Shown one piece after another: positions 16,973 to 33,522 of a stretch of 33,522 nucleotides of DNA. The notes under the pieces are model-generated. The model had not been told where the DNA came from. It worked only from the letters and a program-made list of their open reading frames with translations, and searched no databases. The position numbers were made by a program, and so were the translations under genes. Source of the DNA: Candidatus Nitrosocosmicus sp. (GTDB taxonomy: Archaea; Thermoproteota; Nitrososphaeria; Nitrososphaerales; Nitrososphaeraceae); the NCBI GenBank assembly GCA_025934495.1, contig JAICXY010000030.1:1-33522 (forward strand), written 5' to 3'. The stretch's first letter is position 1. Every line of letters starts with the position of its first letter.

Positions 16973-17159
16973 TCTAATTTAAACTCCCAATATAAGTATA
17001 CTCTTTAATCTATTTAATCATTTAAAAATCTTACAAAAATTATAGAAAATAGTAAGAAATGTATAAGTTTTTAAAAATTTTCAATTGTTTAAATTATATT
17101 TAATTTTTTTAGGGTAAAAAAGCTATTCATTAAACCGAATTTTATTATAAAAGAATAAA

Positions 17160-17818
17160 TCGCTTGCATAATTAGATTAAACAGCTATATGATCAAAAAT
17201 TGATAAATTTCTTGTCCTTTCTTTGCTTTCATATGATAGGATCTTCAAAAAAAACCACTACGGCTTTTCAAATCGTTCACTGGCCTTACAGTACAAGATT
17301 TCGATGTTATTTTCGATAAAGAAATAACAAAAAATATGCTAAACATGAGACACAACGTTTATCAAAAAGAAAGAACAGAATGCGATCTATAGGAGCAGAT
17401 AGACCTTTCAAACTTGATATTAAAGATAGATTTGTAATGCTTTTAGTTTATTATCGCCTGTACATAACCTACACCTTAGCAGAATGTCTCTTTGATCTAG
17501 ATCAAAAGAGCAACATCTGCGTAGAGATATACAAAAGATTGAATATTGAAGATGATTAGAAAATGCGTACCAAATCCACAGAAATTATACAACATAACAA
17601 AGAGGCTAAAAACACCAGCAGAGGAAGTTGAGAAATACTTTTCTGGATTTATGGCTTTCATCGATTACACAGAGCAGTAGATACAATCAAGGCCCATAGA
17701 CAACAAAAGGCATGAGACATCTTATTCTGGCAAAAAGAAAAGGCATACCGTAAAGACATAATTGATTGTCAATAATAAAGGCATTATCATCCATAAATTA
17801 AGATATAAGGAAGGAAGG
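17160..17818 (+). pseudogene. IS5-like (DDE_Tnp_4 type) transposase remnant, truncating the next gene
   Basis: Several frames together give LNIEDD, then TKRLKTPAEVEKYFSGFMAF, IDYTEQ, NKRHETSYSGKKKRHTVKT and LIVNNKGIIIHKLRYKEGR, the middle of a DDE_Tnp_4 type transposase. FIDYTEQ keeps the Asp expected in the catalytic block. Internal stops and frame changes are frequent, and the C-terminal third is missing. The left edge carries cttgcataattag at 17161-17174, which resembles the end of the MITE-like unit at 2109. The coding trace stops inside the minus-strand deacetylase-like gene, so the two meet at about 17815-17825. A sister remnant is at 11310-11830. Confidence 0.75.
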
Positions 17819-18176
17819 AATCAGCAAATTCGCCTTTTCTATTTATAATGGTGTGAGAAAAACCGTGCCGTAATATCTCTATTAATTCATTGGATAATTT
17901 CTTTTTTATAAACTCTATAAGTTGATTATTGCCGATAATAGAATATGATCTTCCCGTCTTTCGTTCTGAAGGAGGCACCAGAATATCATCTATAGATTTC
18001 TGAAAGGATATCACTGAAAGACTTACCTTGAATCTTCTTTTCCATGCATTAGAATAAACACAATCAAGCATATTGGTGGCGGTAAAAAAATTTGTATCAT
18101 CATCACGTAACAAAAATGGAGCTTTTCCCTTTGGACCCAAAAGTATCTCGATAACCATTTCTTTCAATTTATACAA
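17787..18176 (-). pseudogene. Polysaccharide deacetylase-like gene, 5' part only
   Basis: Starting at the ATG at 18176, about 118 native residues remain: APFLLRDDDTNFFTATNM carries the Asp-Asp pair expected at the metal site, and EILRHGFSHTIINRKGEFAD carries the H-x3-H-type motif (HGFSH). This matches DUF2334/NodB-type polysaccharide deacetylases, which remove acyl groups from glycans. The last ~12 codons are antisense transposase sequence (see 17160-17818), so the catalytic C-terminal half has been lost through the insertion or a later deletion. It lies next to sugar-modifying genes, which supports a former glycan role. Confidence 0.7.
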
Positions 18177-27354: not shown

Positions 27355-30300
27355 TCAAAATTCTCTAATTTTTTTATTTATCTCTTGAACTATTTTTTCA
27401 TTATCCGCATCTATCTCGAATGATGCAAGAAGTAAATCATTTTTTAATGGGATAGTTATCCTTTTTACCTTTTCGTATACTGCATATGCGTATTCACCTC
27501 TACCTATCTTGGGAGCAAATTTCTTTCGCAATTTCCATCTAGTCCAGTGAATGTATATTGATTCGTCACTTTCTGATGCCGATATTAGAGGTGTTAATCC
27601 CTGACGTATGTATCTGGCTTGGACTTTACCAAAGGTATCACATACAGTAGCACTTCGTATCCCTTCAATTTTTGTAATTTCTTTACAAAGTTGGTATTTG
27701 ATCGAATCTATTTCTAAATTAAAGTTTTTAATGTCGGTTTGGAAGGACATATTCGTATTATTTTTAAATTCTAATACATTGGGTTTAAATAATGGGTCAA
27801 GAATCTCGGTTAGAATTGTATGAGATACAAAATTACTTTCACATGTTATAAAAAGTAATAATGGATCATTTCTATAATCTAACCGAATAGTTATCCTCTT
27901 TAATTTTTCATGTTTTTCAACACTGTAAATCATTTTACCTATTTTGTTTTCAAGATTTGTGCGATGTATTGAACCCTTCCACAATAATTGAAGCATCATA
28001 GTCTTCTCTTTTTGAGCCAAAAGTAATTTAACTCCTTTTCTATGGTAACTCGTTTTAAATTCGCAACTCACAGGATCAAATATTCCAACAAAACGAATTT
28101 CATCATTTGGATCACCTATGTGCAGTTCTAATATATTTTTACACCATTTGTCTATTTTCTCATCCAGAAATAATTTATCGTTTATAATAGCATTGTCTAA
28201 ACTTACATTTAACGTGTCTGCCATTAATTTATTTATACCTTTGGTAATAGGGTCATAAAGATCAGTGCCAAATAGGTTTACATCTAGAATTATAGAACCG
28301 GACATATTTACACCATTAAAAATAGCATTTGAAAAATCAGCTCCTGAAAGTAAAGTTCCAGAAAAATCAGTTGCATGTAATGTGGATCCAGATAAATCAG
28401 CTCCTGAAAGTATACTTCCAGAAAAATCAGTATTACTTACGTCGGCTACAGAGAGATTGGAATTAAAAAGCACTCCATCACGAATATTAGTATGAATAAG
28501 TTTTCCAAACATTAAGTTTGAACTAGAAAGATCTCCGCCATCAATCTGTGCATCAGACAAGTCTGCTCCAGTTAAATTAGCACCTTGAAGATTGACCTCG
28601 TATAATATCGCACCATTAAGTTTAGCATAAGATAGATCAGCATAAGATAGATCAGCATAAGATAGATCAACCTCAGAAAGATCTGCATGAGAAAAATTAG
28701 TTCGACTTAAATAACTAGAGTTAAAATCACATCCTGCTAGATTGGAATAAGAAAAGTCAATGCCCTGTAAATCTGCATTTGATAATTCTGCCAACTTAAA
28801 TTCTTTAAGATATTGTGGAATTAGATTACCAGAATATTTTATCATCTCTATAAAATTTTCCTTAGATCCATCCTGCGCCAATTCTTTCCATTCTTTTTTA
28901 TCTATTTCTAATTTACTAAGGACAAATAATGATATCCATCTATATAACCACAGATCTTTGAATTTCGTATTGGTTGCAATAGGGATATTTATTCTTTTAC
29001 CTACATCATGCTTTATGCTCGTAGAAATAGAAAATACGTTACTATTATGAATTGCTTTGGATGCAAAGTATTTTAGTTGCTCTAAAAAATTCTTTCTCTT
29101 ATCAATAACATGAATTTTTATGTTATTGTAAATAAAAGAATTCAATAAACTACACTCATCTTCGAGCATAAATTTCTCGAGATTAAGATCATGTGTTTTT
29201 AACAGATCTATTAATCCATCCAAATATTGAATAGTTATTTGGCTAATTTTGCCTAAGTTTAGTCTATGAATATTACCTTCAAGAATACTTTGTATAATAT
29301 ATTCAGCTACTAAATATTCATCAGGAATTTCTGATTTGTCCATTTTATTTGGTCTTTGATTTGATCCTGATTCCCTCTGTGAAAACTTATATTGCAAACC
29401 AAAAAAATCGTATAGTTTCTTTCTTTCATCAAATGTCAGCGTCTTGTCATCTATAATTTTCAGAATTGCTTTTTGTCGTAGCTTATCTCTTTTATTTATA
29501 TTATATTGTTTTCGTCTGGTTTCTATCATTATATTTGGATTTTGTGTATCAATAAAAATTCTATAAAAAGCCAGAAAAGCTTTCAACATATTACTACTAT
29601 ATTGTCGTGAAGGCATGAAATTAAATGGAGAATTAAAATAAAAATATTGAAGACTCCATGCTACACCAGGTTCTATTAATTCTTTGTCATAATATTTAGA
29701 TAAGAGTCTATCAATGTAATTTTCATTCATGCCGTATTTAATTAAAAATGCTTTGAACTTTTCAATATTAAATGACAGTAATCTGATATATTTGTTATAT
29801 TGAACAATATAATTAAATTTGCCTTCTTTCGTTGAGGTTGTTATAACTATTTTTATTTTGATACTTGTGCTCTCTTTTAAATTTCTTAAATTCTTAAATA
29901 ATTTGTTTTTTTCTTCGTCGCAATAATTCAAACCATCTAATATTAGTATAATTCTTTCTACAGGATCTCTTTTGCTTGATTGAATCTTGTCTACAACATA
30001 GTCTAGATTATCCTCTCTATATGCATTATTAAAACAATTTTCTAAAAAGCATATTATAGGGAACCATTTCAAGTCTTTAGCAGTATTATATATAGAAGAA
30101 TAATGGGAGGCTATCATTTTTGCCATTGTAGTTTTACCTACTTTATTTATTCCTCCAATCAATATGATCCATTGATCATCATCTTTGAGAAAGTCTTCTA
30201 ACAAGTTTTTTACATCTTTTATCTCATCATGTTTAATTTTGTAGATTTTATCATCCTTGAGATTCCAAGTATCTCCTTCTGCTATAACTGCATCATGAGG

Positions 30301-31017
30301 AATATAATAATTTAAGATAGGTTTATTATCGAATTTGTTTATATTATTCCTTAATTCCTTTACATAGTTTAGGTAATTTAACTTGTATTCTGATTTTATT
30401 ATATCTAGTATAATTTTATTAATAGGATTTGCAAAAGAAACAACATTGTTATTTTGGTTATTATGAGGATCTATCCAACGATCAGAAATTATTCCAATTA
30501 TTTTGTTATTCATTGAATTTATAATAGGTGCACCACTCATTCCTGGAATAATATCTGGTGAGTCTAATTGAATGCGCTCTTGAAATTTATCATTTAACTT
30601 TACTTTAACTTTTCCTCTAATTTCACCGCTAGCATGTAATCCTCCTTGTAAAGTATCATACATATTGAATCCAAAACTATTAAACGGATGGCCATTTTGG
30701 ATGTCTTCATCAAACTCTTTTGGGATTGTGAATTTACCTGTTGGAAATTTTATTCCTTTCTTAAGCCTTAAAAATGCAATATCTATATCAGGATAGCAGT
30801 AATCTTTTTCTACATGGACTGAAAGATTATCTTCAGAATCTGAAAAAGATACCAAAAGTGAGTTATAATATAGTTTATCTTTTGCTAAGATTACATGATG
30901 ACAAGTTAAAATTAGATCCTCTTCTACAATTAATCCCGATCCAATGATTTTGCAATTCTTATCTTTGATTGCAACAACGCATCTTTGGGGATCCAGGAGT
31001 TTATTTGGTTGGATCAT
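27355..31017 (-). CDS. Trypsin-like protease - STAND NTPase - pentapeptide repeat - DUF6659-like fusion
   Basis: 1220 residues, no signal peptide, cytoplasmic. Domains: trypsin/HtrA-like protease about 10-205 with the triad His41 (LTCHHVI), Asp79 (DIDIAFLRL) and Ser161 (PGMSGAP); STAND/NACHT-type NTPase from about 265, Walker A GINKVGKT (289-296), Walker B RIILILDG (355-362, Asp361), sensor strand KIVITTST; a helical stretch to about 740; pentapeptide repeats about 745-922 (A/S-D/N-L/F-x-x); then two copies of a domain resembling DUF6659 (about 953-1078 and 1103-1217), each with a R-x-G-I/x and a VKRITI-type strand. All catalytic residues are present. STAND proteases of this kind act as switches: a sensor domain triggers NTP-driven assembly that turns on the protease. 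A minus-strand TATA-like tatataat lies at 31051-31058. Divergent, 486 bp away, is a Trypco1-like gene. Confidence 0.88.
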   Translation of the reverse strand: MIQPNKLLDPQRCVVAIKDKNCKIIGSGLIVEEDLILTCHHVILAKDKLYYNSLLVSFSDSEDNLSVHVEKDYCYPDIDIAFLRLKKGIKFPTGKFTIPKEFDEDIQNGHPFNSFGFNMYDTLQGGLHASGEIRGKVKVKLNDKFQERIQLDSPDIIPGMSGAPIINSMNNKIIGIISDRWIDPHNNQNNNVVSFANPINKIILDIIKSEYKLNYLNYVKELRNNINKFDNKPILNYYIPHDAVIAEGDTWNLKDDKIYKIKHDEIKDVKNLLEDFLKDDDQWIILIGGINKVGKTTMAKMIASHYSSIYNTAKDLKWFPIICFLENCFNNAYREDNLDYVVDKIQSSKRDPVERIILILDGLNYCDEEKNKLFKNLRNLKESTSIKIKIVITTSTKEGKFNYIVQYNKYIRLLSFNIEKFKAFLIKYGMNENYIDRLLSKYYDKELIEPGVAWSLQYFYFNSPFNFMPSRQYSSNMLKAFLAFYRIFIDTQNPNIMIETRRKQYNINKRDKLRQKAILKIIDDKTLTFDERKKLYDFFGLQYKFSQRESGSNQRPNKMDKSEIPDEYLVAEYIIQSILEGNIHRLNLGKISQITIQYLDGLIDLLKTHDLNLEKFMLEDECSLLNSFIYNNIKIHVIDKRKNFLEQLKYFASKAIHNSNVFSISTSIKHDVGKRINIPIATNTKFKDLWLYRWISLFVLSKLEIDKKEWKELAQDGSKENFIEMIKYSGNLIPQYLKEFKLAELSNADLQGIDFSYSNLAGCDFNSSYLSRTNFSHADLSEVDLSYADLSYADLSYAKLNGAILYEVNLQGANLTGADLSDAQIDGGDLSSSNLMFGKLIHTNIRDGVLFNSNLSVADVSNTDFSGSILSGADLSGSTLHATDFSGTLLSGADFSNAIFNGVNMSGSIILDVNLFGTDLYDPITKGINKLMADTLNVSLDNAIINDKLFLDEKIDKWCKNILELHIGDPNDEIRFVGIFDPVSCEFKTSYHRKGVKLLLAQKEKTMMLQLLWKGSIHRTNLENKIGKMIYSVEKHEKLKRITIRLDYRNDPLLLFITCESNFVSHTILTEILDPLFKPNVLEFKNNTNMSFQTDIKNFNLEIDSIKYQLCKEITKIEGIRSATVCDTFGKVQARYIRQGLTPLISASESDESIYIHWTRWKLRKKFAPKIGRGEYAYAVYEKVKRITIPLKNDLLLASFEIDADNEKIVQEINKKIREF
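28334..28431 (-). repeat. 60-bp duplicated unit in the pentapeptide region
   Basis: Bases 28334-28371 recur at 28394-28431 with 3 differences, an offset of 60 bp (20 residues, one full turn of four pentapeptide rungs). It shows growth of the solenoid by duplication of whole turns. Confidence 0.85.
28624..28668 (-). repeat. Three perfect 15-bp tandem repeats in the pentapeptide region
   Basis: agcataagatagatc is repeated three times without any difference (28624-28638, 28639-28653, 28654-28668). Each unit is one pentapeptide (DLSYA in the protein, residues about 784-799). Perfect DNA identity shows recent expansion and a chance of slippage-driven length change. Confidence 0.95.
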
Positions 31018-31503: not shown

Positions 31504-31812
31504 ATGATTTATAAAGAAGAAAATGAAGAAGTCCAGTTATCGTTTTTATCAAATTCTCATATAGAAAAAGGGCTTCAACAACTAGGAATAAAAGATGATT
31601 TAACAAAATTTGTTATAAGAATAGATGACTTAAAAAAATGGTTTAGCGGATATAAAATAGAATCTATCGAACTATATATAGAAGGCGTAGTCAAAGATGG
31701 CAATATTACAAAGTTATTTGTTTCATTTGAAGGAAAAGGAGGTTGTAAAATTACTTTAAAACCAGATCAAACTCACATAACAAATGTTGCTAATGAATCT
31801 AACTCTAATTAA
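31504..31812 (+). CDS. Small protein resembling Trypco1-type (trypsin-co-occurring) domains
   Basis: 102 residues: a charged helical front, then a beta-rich second half KIESIELYIEGVVKDGNITK, LFVSFEGKGGCKITLKP (about 54-88), and a polar Asn-rich tail. The pattern of a strand ending in an acidic/hydrophobic run, a turn, and a closing strand of the type F-x-V/I-x-L resembles the Trypco1 family, small proteins found beside trypsin-containing conflict systems. The neighbour is a trypsin-STAND protein, which supports this reading, but the sequence match is by eye and short. It might serve as the sensor, inhibitor or substrate of the large protein. The family call is tentative; the gene itself is likely. 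Confidence 0.55.
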   Translation: MIYKEENEEVQLSFLSNSHIEKGLQQLGIKDDLTKFVIRIDDLKKWFSGYKIESIELYIEGVVKDGNITKLFVSFEGKGGCKITLKPDQTHITNVANESNSN

Positions 31813-32305: not shown

Positions 32306-33376
32306 ATGGAGCATGAAGTAATTATTTATAATGGAATAAGTAAATCTTCAACAAAACAACACTTTGATCCTCCATTTACAGAAATTATGATAAATGATAC
32401 CATTAGATGGACTAACAGAGATACTGAATCACATAACATAGTTTCAGGCGAGGCTTCAACTGCAAAACCCGATTATATATTTTCGACAGGAGTAATAGAA
32501 CCTGGAAAAGATCTCACTTTTGAATTTAAACATTTCTTTACATATATCCCCTATTTTTGTGTTATACACCCTCAAGAACGAGGCATAATTACAATGACTC
32601 TAAAGGACAGTCATGATATGACTTTTAGAGAGACAAAAGAATATTTTCATAAGGTATTTGAGTTTAAAGATACCGATGGAATTCCTATCGGACCTAACGT
32701 TGGACCATACCTTGATCCAGCTATACTATCAGAAATTATTGAAACTGCTGATCCTGTTATGTATAGTCGAAAAGTTGCAATTGTGTTTTGGGATATTAGT
32801 CGATTTTCTTTATTATCAGAAAATCTTAAAATGGCTCCTCATTTAATAATGGGTTTTTTATCAGAATATTTTTCATTGGCCATAAAAATCATCCACAATC
32901 ACAATGGCATTGTTGATAAATTTATAGGAGGAGGAATAATGGCTTTCTTTGGCAAAAATTATGATGATGATGGTATTAAAGGTTCTATAGACGCAATAAA
33001 CGCTGCCATAGAGTTAAGAAAATCTTTTGATACTTTGAAATTAAGATGGATAAGCATATGGAAAACTCAAATCGAATATCCTACTATTATAGATCTTAAA
33101 TGTGGAATAAATACAGGGGACGTATTGATGGGTGAAATTACCACAGAAGGAAGAAAACAATTTTCATTATTTGGGTCTACTGTTAATTTGGCAAGCAGAT
33201 TAGAAGGAGAAGGTGACAATGACCAAATAATTATATCGCATTATACGTATGGTTTAATCAACAGTATTTTTGAAACAACAATAAAAAAAATAACTAATAA
33301 AATTAAGGCTTTTGAATACATTACGGAATACTATGAAATAACAAATAATAATTCAATAACGGCTCTGTTCACTTAG
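32306..33376 (+). CDS. Cupredoxin - class III nucleotide cyclase fusion
   Basis: 356 residues. N-terminal plastocyanin-like domain (about 1-98) with copper ligands His43 (SHNIV), Cys85 and His88 (YFCVIHPQ); the usual axial Met six residues after the Cys is Glu91. There is no signal peptide, so unlike most cupredoxins it is cytoplasmic. A class III adenylate/guanylate cyclase domain follows (about 152-345): AIVFWDISRFS with metal Asp163, KFIGGGIMAFFG with the substrate Lys205, CGINTGDVLMGE, and GSTVNLASRLE with Asn294 and Arg298. The second metal Asp, in the usual GDG, is Gly209 (GGG), so catalysis may be lost or altered. The last codons (ALFT and stop) come from an IS6-type element that starts at 33361. 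Confidence 0.85.
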   Translation: MEHEVIIYNGISKSSTKQHFDPPFTEIMINDTIRWTNRDTESHNIVSGEASTAKPDYIFSTGVIEPGKDLTFEFKHFFTYIPYFCVIHPQERGIITMTLKDSHDMTFRETKEYFHKVFEFKDTDGIPIGPNVGPYLDPAILSEIIETADPVMYSRKVAIVFWDISRFSLLSENLKMAPHLIMGFLSEYFSLAIKIIHNHNGIVDKFIGGGIMAFFGKNYDDDGIKGSIDAINAAIELRKSFDTLKLRWISIWKTQIEYPTIIDLKCGINTGDVLMGEITTEGRKQFSLFGSTVNLASRLEGEGDNDQIIISHYTYGLINSIFETTIKKITNKIKAFEYITEYYEITNNNSITALFT

Positions 33377-33522
33377 GACCTTTTTTCTTTATTGTGATAA
33401 TCTGCAAACAGTTTCAACCAGTTCGTTACATGTTTTAATTTACAATTCTTTCGTTTGCAAGGAAAGTAATCATCGAAACTTTCTATGGTTCTATCTTTTA
33501 TGTATTGTATAGTTCTTTCAAT
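33361..33522 (-). mobile_element. IS6-family element inserted at the end of the cyclase gene (partial)
   Basis: It begins with ggctctgttcacttagg, the family's terminal repeat, and carries on the minus strand the C-terminus of a transposase: IERTIQYIKDRT, SFDDYFPCKRKNCKLKHV, TNWLKLFADYHNKEKRS and a stop. This equals the end of the intact IS6 transposase at 3793-4419 with many substitutions, so it is a related but different copy. It runs off the window. The target duplication on this side would be tcaataac (33353-33360). Confidence 0.9.

What the first reader, a model, noticed from the sequence alone, without database searches (positions are those of the whole stretch)
27355..31017. Trypsin - STAND NTPase - pentapeptide - twin DUF6659 fusion in an archaeon
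Seen: one uninterrupted 1220-codon frame with an intact Ser protease triad (His41, Asp79, Ser161), an intact Walker A (GINKVGKT) and Walker B, about 35 pentapeptide repeats, and two C-terminal copies of a DUF6659-like domain. Known: STAND/NACHT NTPases with a protease effector at one end and a repeat sensor at the other act in programmed cell death and antiviral conflict in bacteria. Inference: the pentapeptide solenoid and the DUF6659-like pair form the sensor, and the protease is the effector, giving an archaeal protease-armed switch. DUF6659 is to my knowledge described only as a stand-alone thaumarchaeal protein, so its use as a sensor module would be new.
Basis: partly seen in the sequence, partly recalled or inferred. 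Interest (0 to 1): 0.85.

Follow-up and report, generated by a model that had tools for sequence, protein, structure and literature searches.

The report
Archaeal protease-armed NLR-like immune switch
A soil archaeon carries a single giant protein that looks like an immune alarm: a protease 'weapon', a nucleotide-driven switch and a sensor end. The sensor end carries two domains borrowed from the archaeon's own Roadblock-type protein family, and in the same genome a second alarm with a different weapon (TIR) carries the same sensor end.

Summary
The reading frame is real and lies on the minus strand (27355-31017, 1220 aa). It encodes an intracellular trypsin-like protease (intact His41/Asp79/Ser161), a NACHT-like STAND NTPase, 37 in-register pentapeptide repeats and two DUF6659-family domains. 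Relatives show NLR-style modularity. The STAND-pentapeptide chassis recurs in two other Nitrososphaeria and one broken copy, each with a different N-terminus. The pentapeptide plus twin-DUF6659 tail recurs once more in this genome, on a TIR-STAND protein beside a SLOG-SLATT gene and two further STAND-TPR genes. None of 14 congeners has the window gene. AlphaFold2 and Foldseek show that DUF6659 is a Roadblock/LC7-fold family, which had not been annotated as such. Best reading: an archaeal NLR-like, probably antiviral, protease switch. Its tail integrates host-lineage Roadblock domains, as bait or partner for infection sensing, comparable to plant NLR integrated domains. The mechanism and the defence role are inferred. 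It is a new variant of a known kind (STAND/Avs/bNACHT-like).

The parts
27355..31017 (-). whole gene, 1220 aa, ATG start
30403..30987 (-). trypsin-like (S1, Trypsin_2) protease domain, residues 11-205; no signal peptide seen; putative effector
   Evidence: Pfam E=8e-14; PADLOC PDC-M35A E=1.4e-5
30895..30897 (-). catalytic His41 (Asp79 at 30781-30783, Ser161 at 30535-30537)
28813..30360 (-). STAND/NACHT-like NTPase with helical C-part, residues 220-735
   Evidence: Pfam NPHP3_N/AAA_14/NACHT; aligns over its full length with L038/L039, E about 1e-45 and 1e-41
30130..30153 (-). Walker A GINKVGKT, residues 289-296
29923..29955 (-). Walker B ILILDGLNYCD; D361 kept, DGLDE acidic pair lost (DGLNY)
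29821..29841 (-). sensor-1 region TTSTKEG (relatives have TTR)
28252..28806 (-). 37 in-register pentapeptide repeats, residues 738-922
   Evidence: PF00805 E=1e-33; run of 37 against at most 11 in shuffles
27808..28146 (-). DUF6659/Roadblock-fold domain copy 1, residues 958-1070 (diverged)
   Evidence: clean HMM 2.5e-14; Roadblock order of elements in the AF2 twin model
27385..27690 (-). DUF6659/Roadblock-fold domain copy 2, residues 1110-1211 (about 45% identical to stand-alone DUF6659)
   Evidence: clean HMM 1.9e-28; AF2 pLDDT 93.5, Foldseek Roadblock

Best explanation
The protein is an archaeal NLR-like (STAND) conflict switch with a protease effector. Shown: the domain order trypsin - NACHT-like NTPase - pentapeptide solenoid - two Roadblock/LC7-fold (DUF6659) domains; exchange of N-terminal effectors on the chassis; and exchange of chassis under the same tail. 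Inferred: at rest the tail holds the NTPase closed. During infection a viral or mobile-element factor, or a change in a host DUF6659/Roadblock partner, engages the pentapeptide-Roadblock tail. The NTPase, which binds nucleotide but is probably weak in hydrolysis, then oligomerises and brings the protease domains together, and these cut cellular proteins or a partner proenzyme, causing dormancy or death. The two Roadblock domains come from a thaumarchaeal family with several stand-alone paralogues per genome, so they most plausibly act as an integrated bait for, or docking site on, that host family.
For: Protease, STAND and pentapeptide HMM matches and intact triad. Chassis relatives: L038 and L039 with other N-termini, and a broken relative in G659 with a PNP_UDP_1 phosphorylase N-terminus (E=4.8e-7) and NACHT over cut-off, beside a type II restriction endonuclease and methyltransferase. 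Same tail on a TIR-STAND paralogue whose NTPase is not detectably a close relative, in a cluster with an LSDAT-SLATT gene (E=8e-42 and 5e-23) and two STAND-TPR genes. Absent from all 14 congeners. NACHT matches: 4 in this genome, 0-1 weak ones in each congener. DUF6659 = Roadblock/LC7 fold: AF2 pLDDT 93.5, all 50 best PDB matches Roadblock, best E=6e-8; copy 1 shows the same order of elements. Precedents: Avs STAND tails bind phage proteins, bNACHT25 guards a host process via DnaJ (PMC12169576), and trypsin fused to Avs activates a pro-nuclease (PMC12799240).
Against: No experiment. No recognisable defence genes next to the window gene and no MBL pro-nuclease or Trypco partner. Walker B extension and sensor 1 are degenerate, so the switch may be slow or partly decayed. 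The twin-DUF6659 tail was found in one genome only (two genes), so recurrence is thin. Neither domain 1 nor the relative placement of the two domains is confidently modelled (twin pTM 0.51).
Confidence: 0.66

Rival explanations
1. It is an NLR-like switch, but the twin Roadblock domains are not the sensor. They are an oligomerisation or docking scaffold, or a cis-acting regulator of the NTPase (as Roadblock proteins regulate NTPases), while the pentapeptide solenoid alone senses.
For: Roadblock proteins are dimerisation modules implicated in NTPase regulation (literature quoted in PMC4316618); chassis relatives L038 and L039 have long pentapeptide solenoids and no DUF6659, so sensing can work without it.
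Against: The tail sits at the C-terminal position used for variable sensors and is shared by two otherwise different STAND proteins.
Confidence: 0.25
2. A non-immune regulated protease, for example in stress or developmental signalling of an aggregating soil archaeon.
For: Neighbouring window genes are polysaccharide, stress and transport genes, not defence genes.
Against: Patchy presence, effector exchange, and relatives beside restriction-modification and SLOG-SLATT genes.
Confidence: 0.12
3. A decaying copy: the ORF is intact but the switch is dead (Walker B and sensor-1 changes).
For: DGLNY and TTS replace DGLDE and TTR of the relatives.
Against: 1220 codons without a stop in about 28% G+C DNA, intact triad and Walker A.
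Confidence: 0.1
4. The Roadblock pair senses a Ras-like small GTPase, as MglB and Ragulator do.
For: Fold match to MglB, MP1/p14 and Ragulator.
Against: The Roc model finds no small GTPase over cut-off in this genome, only a weak match in a 594-aa frame; no small GTPase gene was seen within 1.5 kb of 94 DUF6659 genes.
Confidence: 0.05

Closest known systems
Avs / AVAST (antiviral STAND NTPases), incl. Avs1 with trypsin
   Same: N-terminal effector, central STAND, C-terminal sensor; a trypsin effector exists in Avs1
   Different: No MBL pro-nuclease upstream, pentapeptide-Roadblock tail instead of TPR-type sensor, archaeal; not detected by the PADLOC Avs models
bNACHT (bacterial NLR-related proteins, e.g. 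bNACHT25)
   Same: NACHT-like NTPase with exchangeable N-terminal effector; guard-type sensing has a precedent
   Different: Different C-terminal modules; trypsin effector; no NCH1/SNaCT domain was identified
Trypsin-nSTAND1-WD40 with Trypco1 (Kaur/Aravind conflict systems; e.g. Streptomyces coeruleorubidus plasmid NZ_CP137525)
   Same: Trypsin at the N-terminus of a STAND protein (tblastn E=5e-8 over residues 13-361)
   Different: nSTAND1 and WD40 instead of NACHT-like and pentapeptide; Trypco1 neighbour absent in the window
Plant NLRs with integrated domains (NLR-ID / integrated decoy)
   Same: A copy of a host protein family fused to the receptor tail
   Different: Analogy only; different kingdom, decoy function untested
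DUF6659 (PF20364) stand-alone thaumarchaeal proteins; Roadblock/LC7 superfamily
   Same: Both tail domains belong to it; fold is Roadblock
   Different: Here duplicated and fused to a STAND protein

Membership tests
STAND/NACHT NTPase (NLR-like) | P-loop NTPase region scoring to NACHT/STAND models | tested here: met
   NPHP3_N 7e-7 over cut-off; NACHT 5e-4 below cut-off; close relatives over NACHT cut-off
STAND/NACHT NTPase (NLR-like) | Walker A | tested here: met
   GINKVGKT at 289
STAND/NACHT NTPase (NLR-like) | Walker B with NACHT acidic extension (DGLDE) and sensor-1 Arg | tested here: not met
   DGLNY, TTS; relatives keep DGLDEY, TTR; hhhhD core is kept
STAND/NACHT NTPase (NLR-like) | tripartite effector - NTPase - C-terminal repeats/sensor | tested here: met
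AVAST type with trypsin (Avs1) | upstream MBL-fold pro-nuclease gene | tested here: not met
   no MBL gene among the window ORFs scanned
Trypco-type trypsin conflict system | adjacent Trypco1/Trypco2 gene | tested here: not met
   neighbour 31504-31812 has no Trypco match; its relatives sit beside non-protease genes in the two loci whose neighbours could be read
Anti-phage defence system | demonstrated protection | not testable with these tools
   needs experiment
Roadblock/LC7 fold | a-b-b-a-b-b-b-a fold superposing on Roadblock structures | tested here: met
   AF2 pLDDT 93.5; Foldseek top 50 Roadblock, TM up to 0.84
Roadblock/LC7 fold | match to Pfam Robl_LC7 by sequence | tested here: not met
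   no Robl_LC7 match in the genome or in any of the 49 aligned members
DUF6659 (PF20364) | over Pfam gathering cut-off | tested here: not met
   copy 2 E=0.008, 16.8 bits against 27; homology shown instead through an HMM of stand-alone relatives
Plant-type integrated decoy | domain targeted by a pathogen factor in the host paralogue | not testable with these tools
   no virus data

The most novel reading that the evidence does not exclude
This archaeon built two NLR-like immune receptors (protease-armed and TIR-armed) on different STAND chassis by giving both the same 'integrated decoy' tail: a pair of Roadblock-fold domains copied from its lineage's own DUF6659 family, used as bait for viral factors that target that family.
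Probability: 0.3. Interest if true: 0.87.

Novelty: new variant of a known kind. Interest (0 to 1): 0.64.

Why it matters
NLR-like STAND immunity is well studied in bacteria, plants, animals and fungi but poorly documented in ammonia-oxidising archaea. Here one genome shows effector exchange (protease, TIR) under a shared sensor tail, and that tail is made from a host-lineage family never annotated as Roadblock. If the tail is bait, archaea use the integrated-decoy strategy known from plant NLRs, which becomes testable with two genes and the stand-alone DUF6659 paralogues. Assigning DUF6659 to the Roadblock fold also gives a handle on a family with several copies in most Nitrososphaeria surveyed.

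Tried and rejected
Trypco identity of the 102-aa neighbour 31504-31812: no Pfam match, no hhalign signal (E 0.6), and relatives of it in G100 and G306 sit beside SRPBCC, SnoaL-like or MarR-type genes, not proteases. Ras-like GTPase partner: no good candidate in the genome or beside DUF6659 genes. Sequence search of DUF6659 against PDB: nothing, which is why a fold comparison was needed. Genome-contig scan with the whole protein: no relative. Viral-contig scan with DUF6659: none, so no sign that DUF6659 is common on viruses. Plasmid tblastn with the STAND-pentapeptide region: only pentapeptide matches among the rows read. DUF6659 tree: domain 1 and both domains of the TIR paralogue are too long-branched to place; only copy 2 falls inside the stand-alone radiation, also on a long branch, so one or two captures cannot be told apart. 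Effector identity of G136 (looks like a Cap4/DUF4297-type nuclease by eye, D..QxK) and G264 could not be confirmed.

Full report
Observation. The frame lies on the minus strand, 31017 down to 27355, and is open for 1220 codons in DNA of about 28% G+C. Pfam places Trypsin_2 at 26-176 (E=8e-14 on the isolated domain), NPHP3_N/AAA_14/ATPase_2/NACHT over the 265-520 region (NPHP3_N 7e-7, over its cut-off; the others below theirs), pentapeptides (1e-33) and a weak DUF6659 at the C-terminus (0.008). The pentapeptide register runs unbroken for 37 units, 738-922; shuffles of the same residues never exceed 11.

Nucleotide site. Walker A (GINKVGKT, 289) is canonical. Walker B keeps hhhhD, but the acidic extension reads DGLNY, and sensor 1 reads TTS. 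The two closest chassis relatives keep DGLDEY and TTR. So nucleotide binding is likely; hydrolysis may be weak. This is a correction to 'intact Walker B'.

The two tail domains. An HMM built only from stand-alone DUF6659 proteins of other genomes (window and paralogue rows removed) finds both copies: 968-1067 at 2.5e-14 and 1110-1210 at 1.9e-28 (Z=1e5). 33 of the 49 aligned relatives match PF20364 itself, best 6e-40. AlphaFold2 of copy 2 with 48 relatives gives pLDDT 93.5, pTM 0.85 and the order a-b-b-a-b-b-b-a. Foldseek against PDB returns Roadblock/LC7 proteins in all of the 50 best rows (Asgard Roadblock 7yh1, E=6e-8, TM 0.84; MglB; MP1/p14; Ragulator). A twin model shows the same order of elements for copy 1, at moderate confidence and with uncertain domain placement (pTM 0.51). 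The Pfam Roadblock model sees nothing in this genome, and no paper in the held library mentions DUF6659. Hence DUF6659 is a Roadblock-fold family not annotated as such.

Relatives and modularity. In 400 genomes of the class, the STAND part is matched over its length only in G136 (29%) and G264 (32%). Both have the same NTPase-pentapeptide chassis with different N-termini and no DUF6659. A phylum-wide profile search adds one broken relative, G659, whose N-terminal piece is a PNP_UDP_1 phosphorylase; it lies beside a BsaWI-type restriction enzyme and a methyltransferase. In the window's own genome a second gene, L040:5410-8865 (1151 aa), reads TIR (8e-19) - STAND (nSTAND3/NACHT) - pentapeptides - twin DUF6659. 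Its tail aligns collinearly with the window protein's tail (E=4e-10), while its NTPase is not a close relative. It sits 97 bp behind an LSDAT-SLATT gene and next to TIR-NB-ARC-TPR and DUF4062-NB-ARC-TPR genes, a typical conflict cluster. In the class survey with the twin profile only these two genes carry the twin tail; all other listed matches are single DUF6659 domains.

Distribution. None of 14 congeners has the gene, and at DNA level only the Hsp20 gene, repeats and a short stretch near window 25.6 kb are shared around it. This genome has four NACHT-model matches; congeners have none or one weak one. So it is accessory, not housekeeping. However, its immediate neighbours in the window are sugar, methylation, stress and unknown genes, so a 'defence island' is shown for the paralogue and, by its restriction-modification neighbours, for the G659 relative, not for the window gene itself.

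Mechanism. Shown: parts, order, exchange of effectors and of chassis. From known families: STAND proteins with N-terminal effector and C-terminal sensor sense phage proteins directly (Avs) or guard host processes (bNACHT25 through DnaJ; PMC12169576); trypsin domains fused to Avs act by cutting a partner pro-nuclease (PMC12799240), a partner not found here. Inferred: the pentapeptide-Roadblock tail detects infection and releases the protease. The two Roadblock domains belong to a family with several stand-alone copies per genome; copy 2 is still about 45% identical to them and falls inside their tree, though on a long branch with uncertain placement. That fits a captured host domain used as bait or docking partner. 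A small-GTPase ligand is unlikely because no clear small GTPase was found.

Verdict. The interpretation as a protease-armed STAND switch is well supported by anatomy and comparison, and the sensor role of the twin domain is supported but unproven. It is a new variant of a known kind; the integrated-decoy reading is the most interesting one not excluded.

Noticed in passing
L040:1083-12908 (G000:C138): Cluster of three STAND genes (DUF4062-NB-ARC + separate TPR frame, TIR-STAND-pentapeptide-DUF6659, TIR-NB-ARC-TPR) with an LSDAT-SLATT gene: an archaeal conflict island absent from congeners at the NACHT-model level.
   Followed up: partly
L042:5962-6903 and similar frames of about 313-350 aa (G329, G328, G184, G248, G201, G353): DUF6659 fused behind a hydrophobic, apparently multi-helix membrane region; recurs in several Nitrososphaeraceae. 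The membrane part was read in L042 only.
   Followed up: no
L101:3322-3864, L121:1987-2499: DUF6659 fused to an N-terminal cysteine-rich zinc-finger-like (MYND-like by eye) segment; no Pfam match for the finger.
   Followed up: no
L089, L093, L096, L099, L108, L112, L113, L114: DUF6659 genes often come in adjacent pairs (tandem or convergent), suggesting heterodimers.
   Followed up: no
window 33355-33522: About 165-bp stretch at the contig end that recurs in many copies (75-80% identity) in nearly all congeners; probably a mobile or repeated element that broke the assembly.
   Followed up: no
window 17149-17823: Stretch of about 670 bp with about 20 copies (72-79% identity) on other contigs of the genome; probably an IS or other dispersed repeat.
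   Followed up: no
L039:4139-6972: Two adjacent genes before the G264 relative that look by eye like GHKL-ATPase and Toprim/Topo VI-type proteins; no Pfam match.
   Followed up: partly
L128:2021-6322, L129:1965-5819: Nitrosopumilaceae-type surface proteins with a very long pentapeptide tail next to a glycosyltransferase; conserved neighbourhood, two genomes. The N-terminal part looks deacetylase-like by eye only.
   Followed up: no
window 31504-31812: Small protein family (about 100-125 aa, C-terminal '..ESIEL..G....KL.V....GG.K.TLKP') scattered in Nitrososphaeraceae, unknown function.
   Followed up: partly
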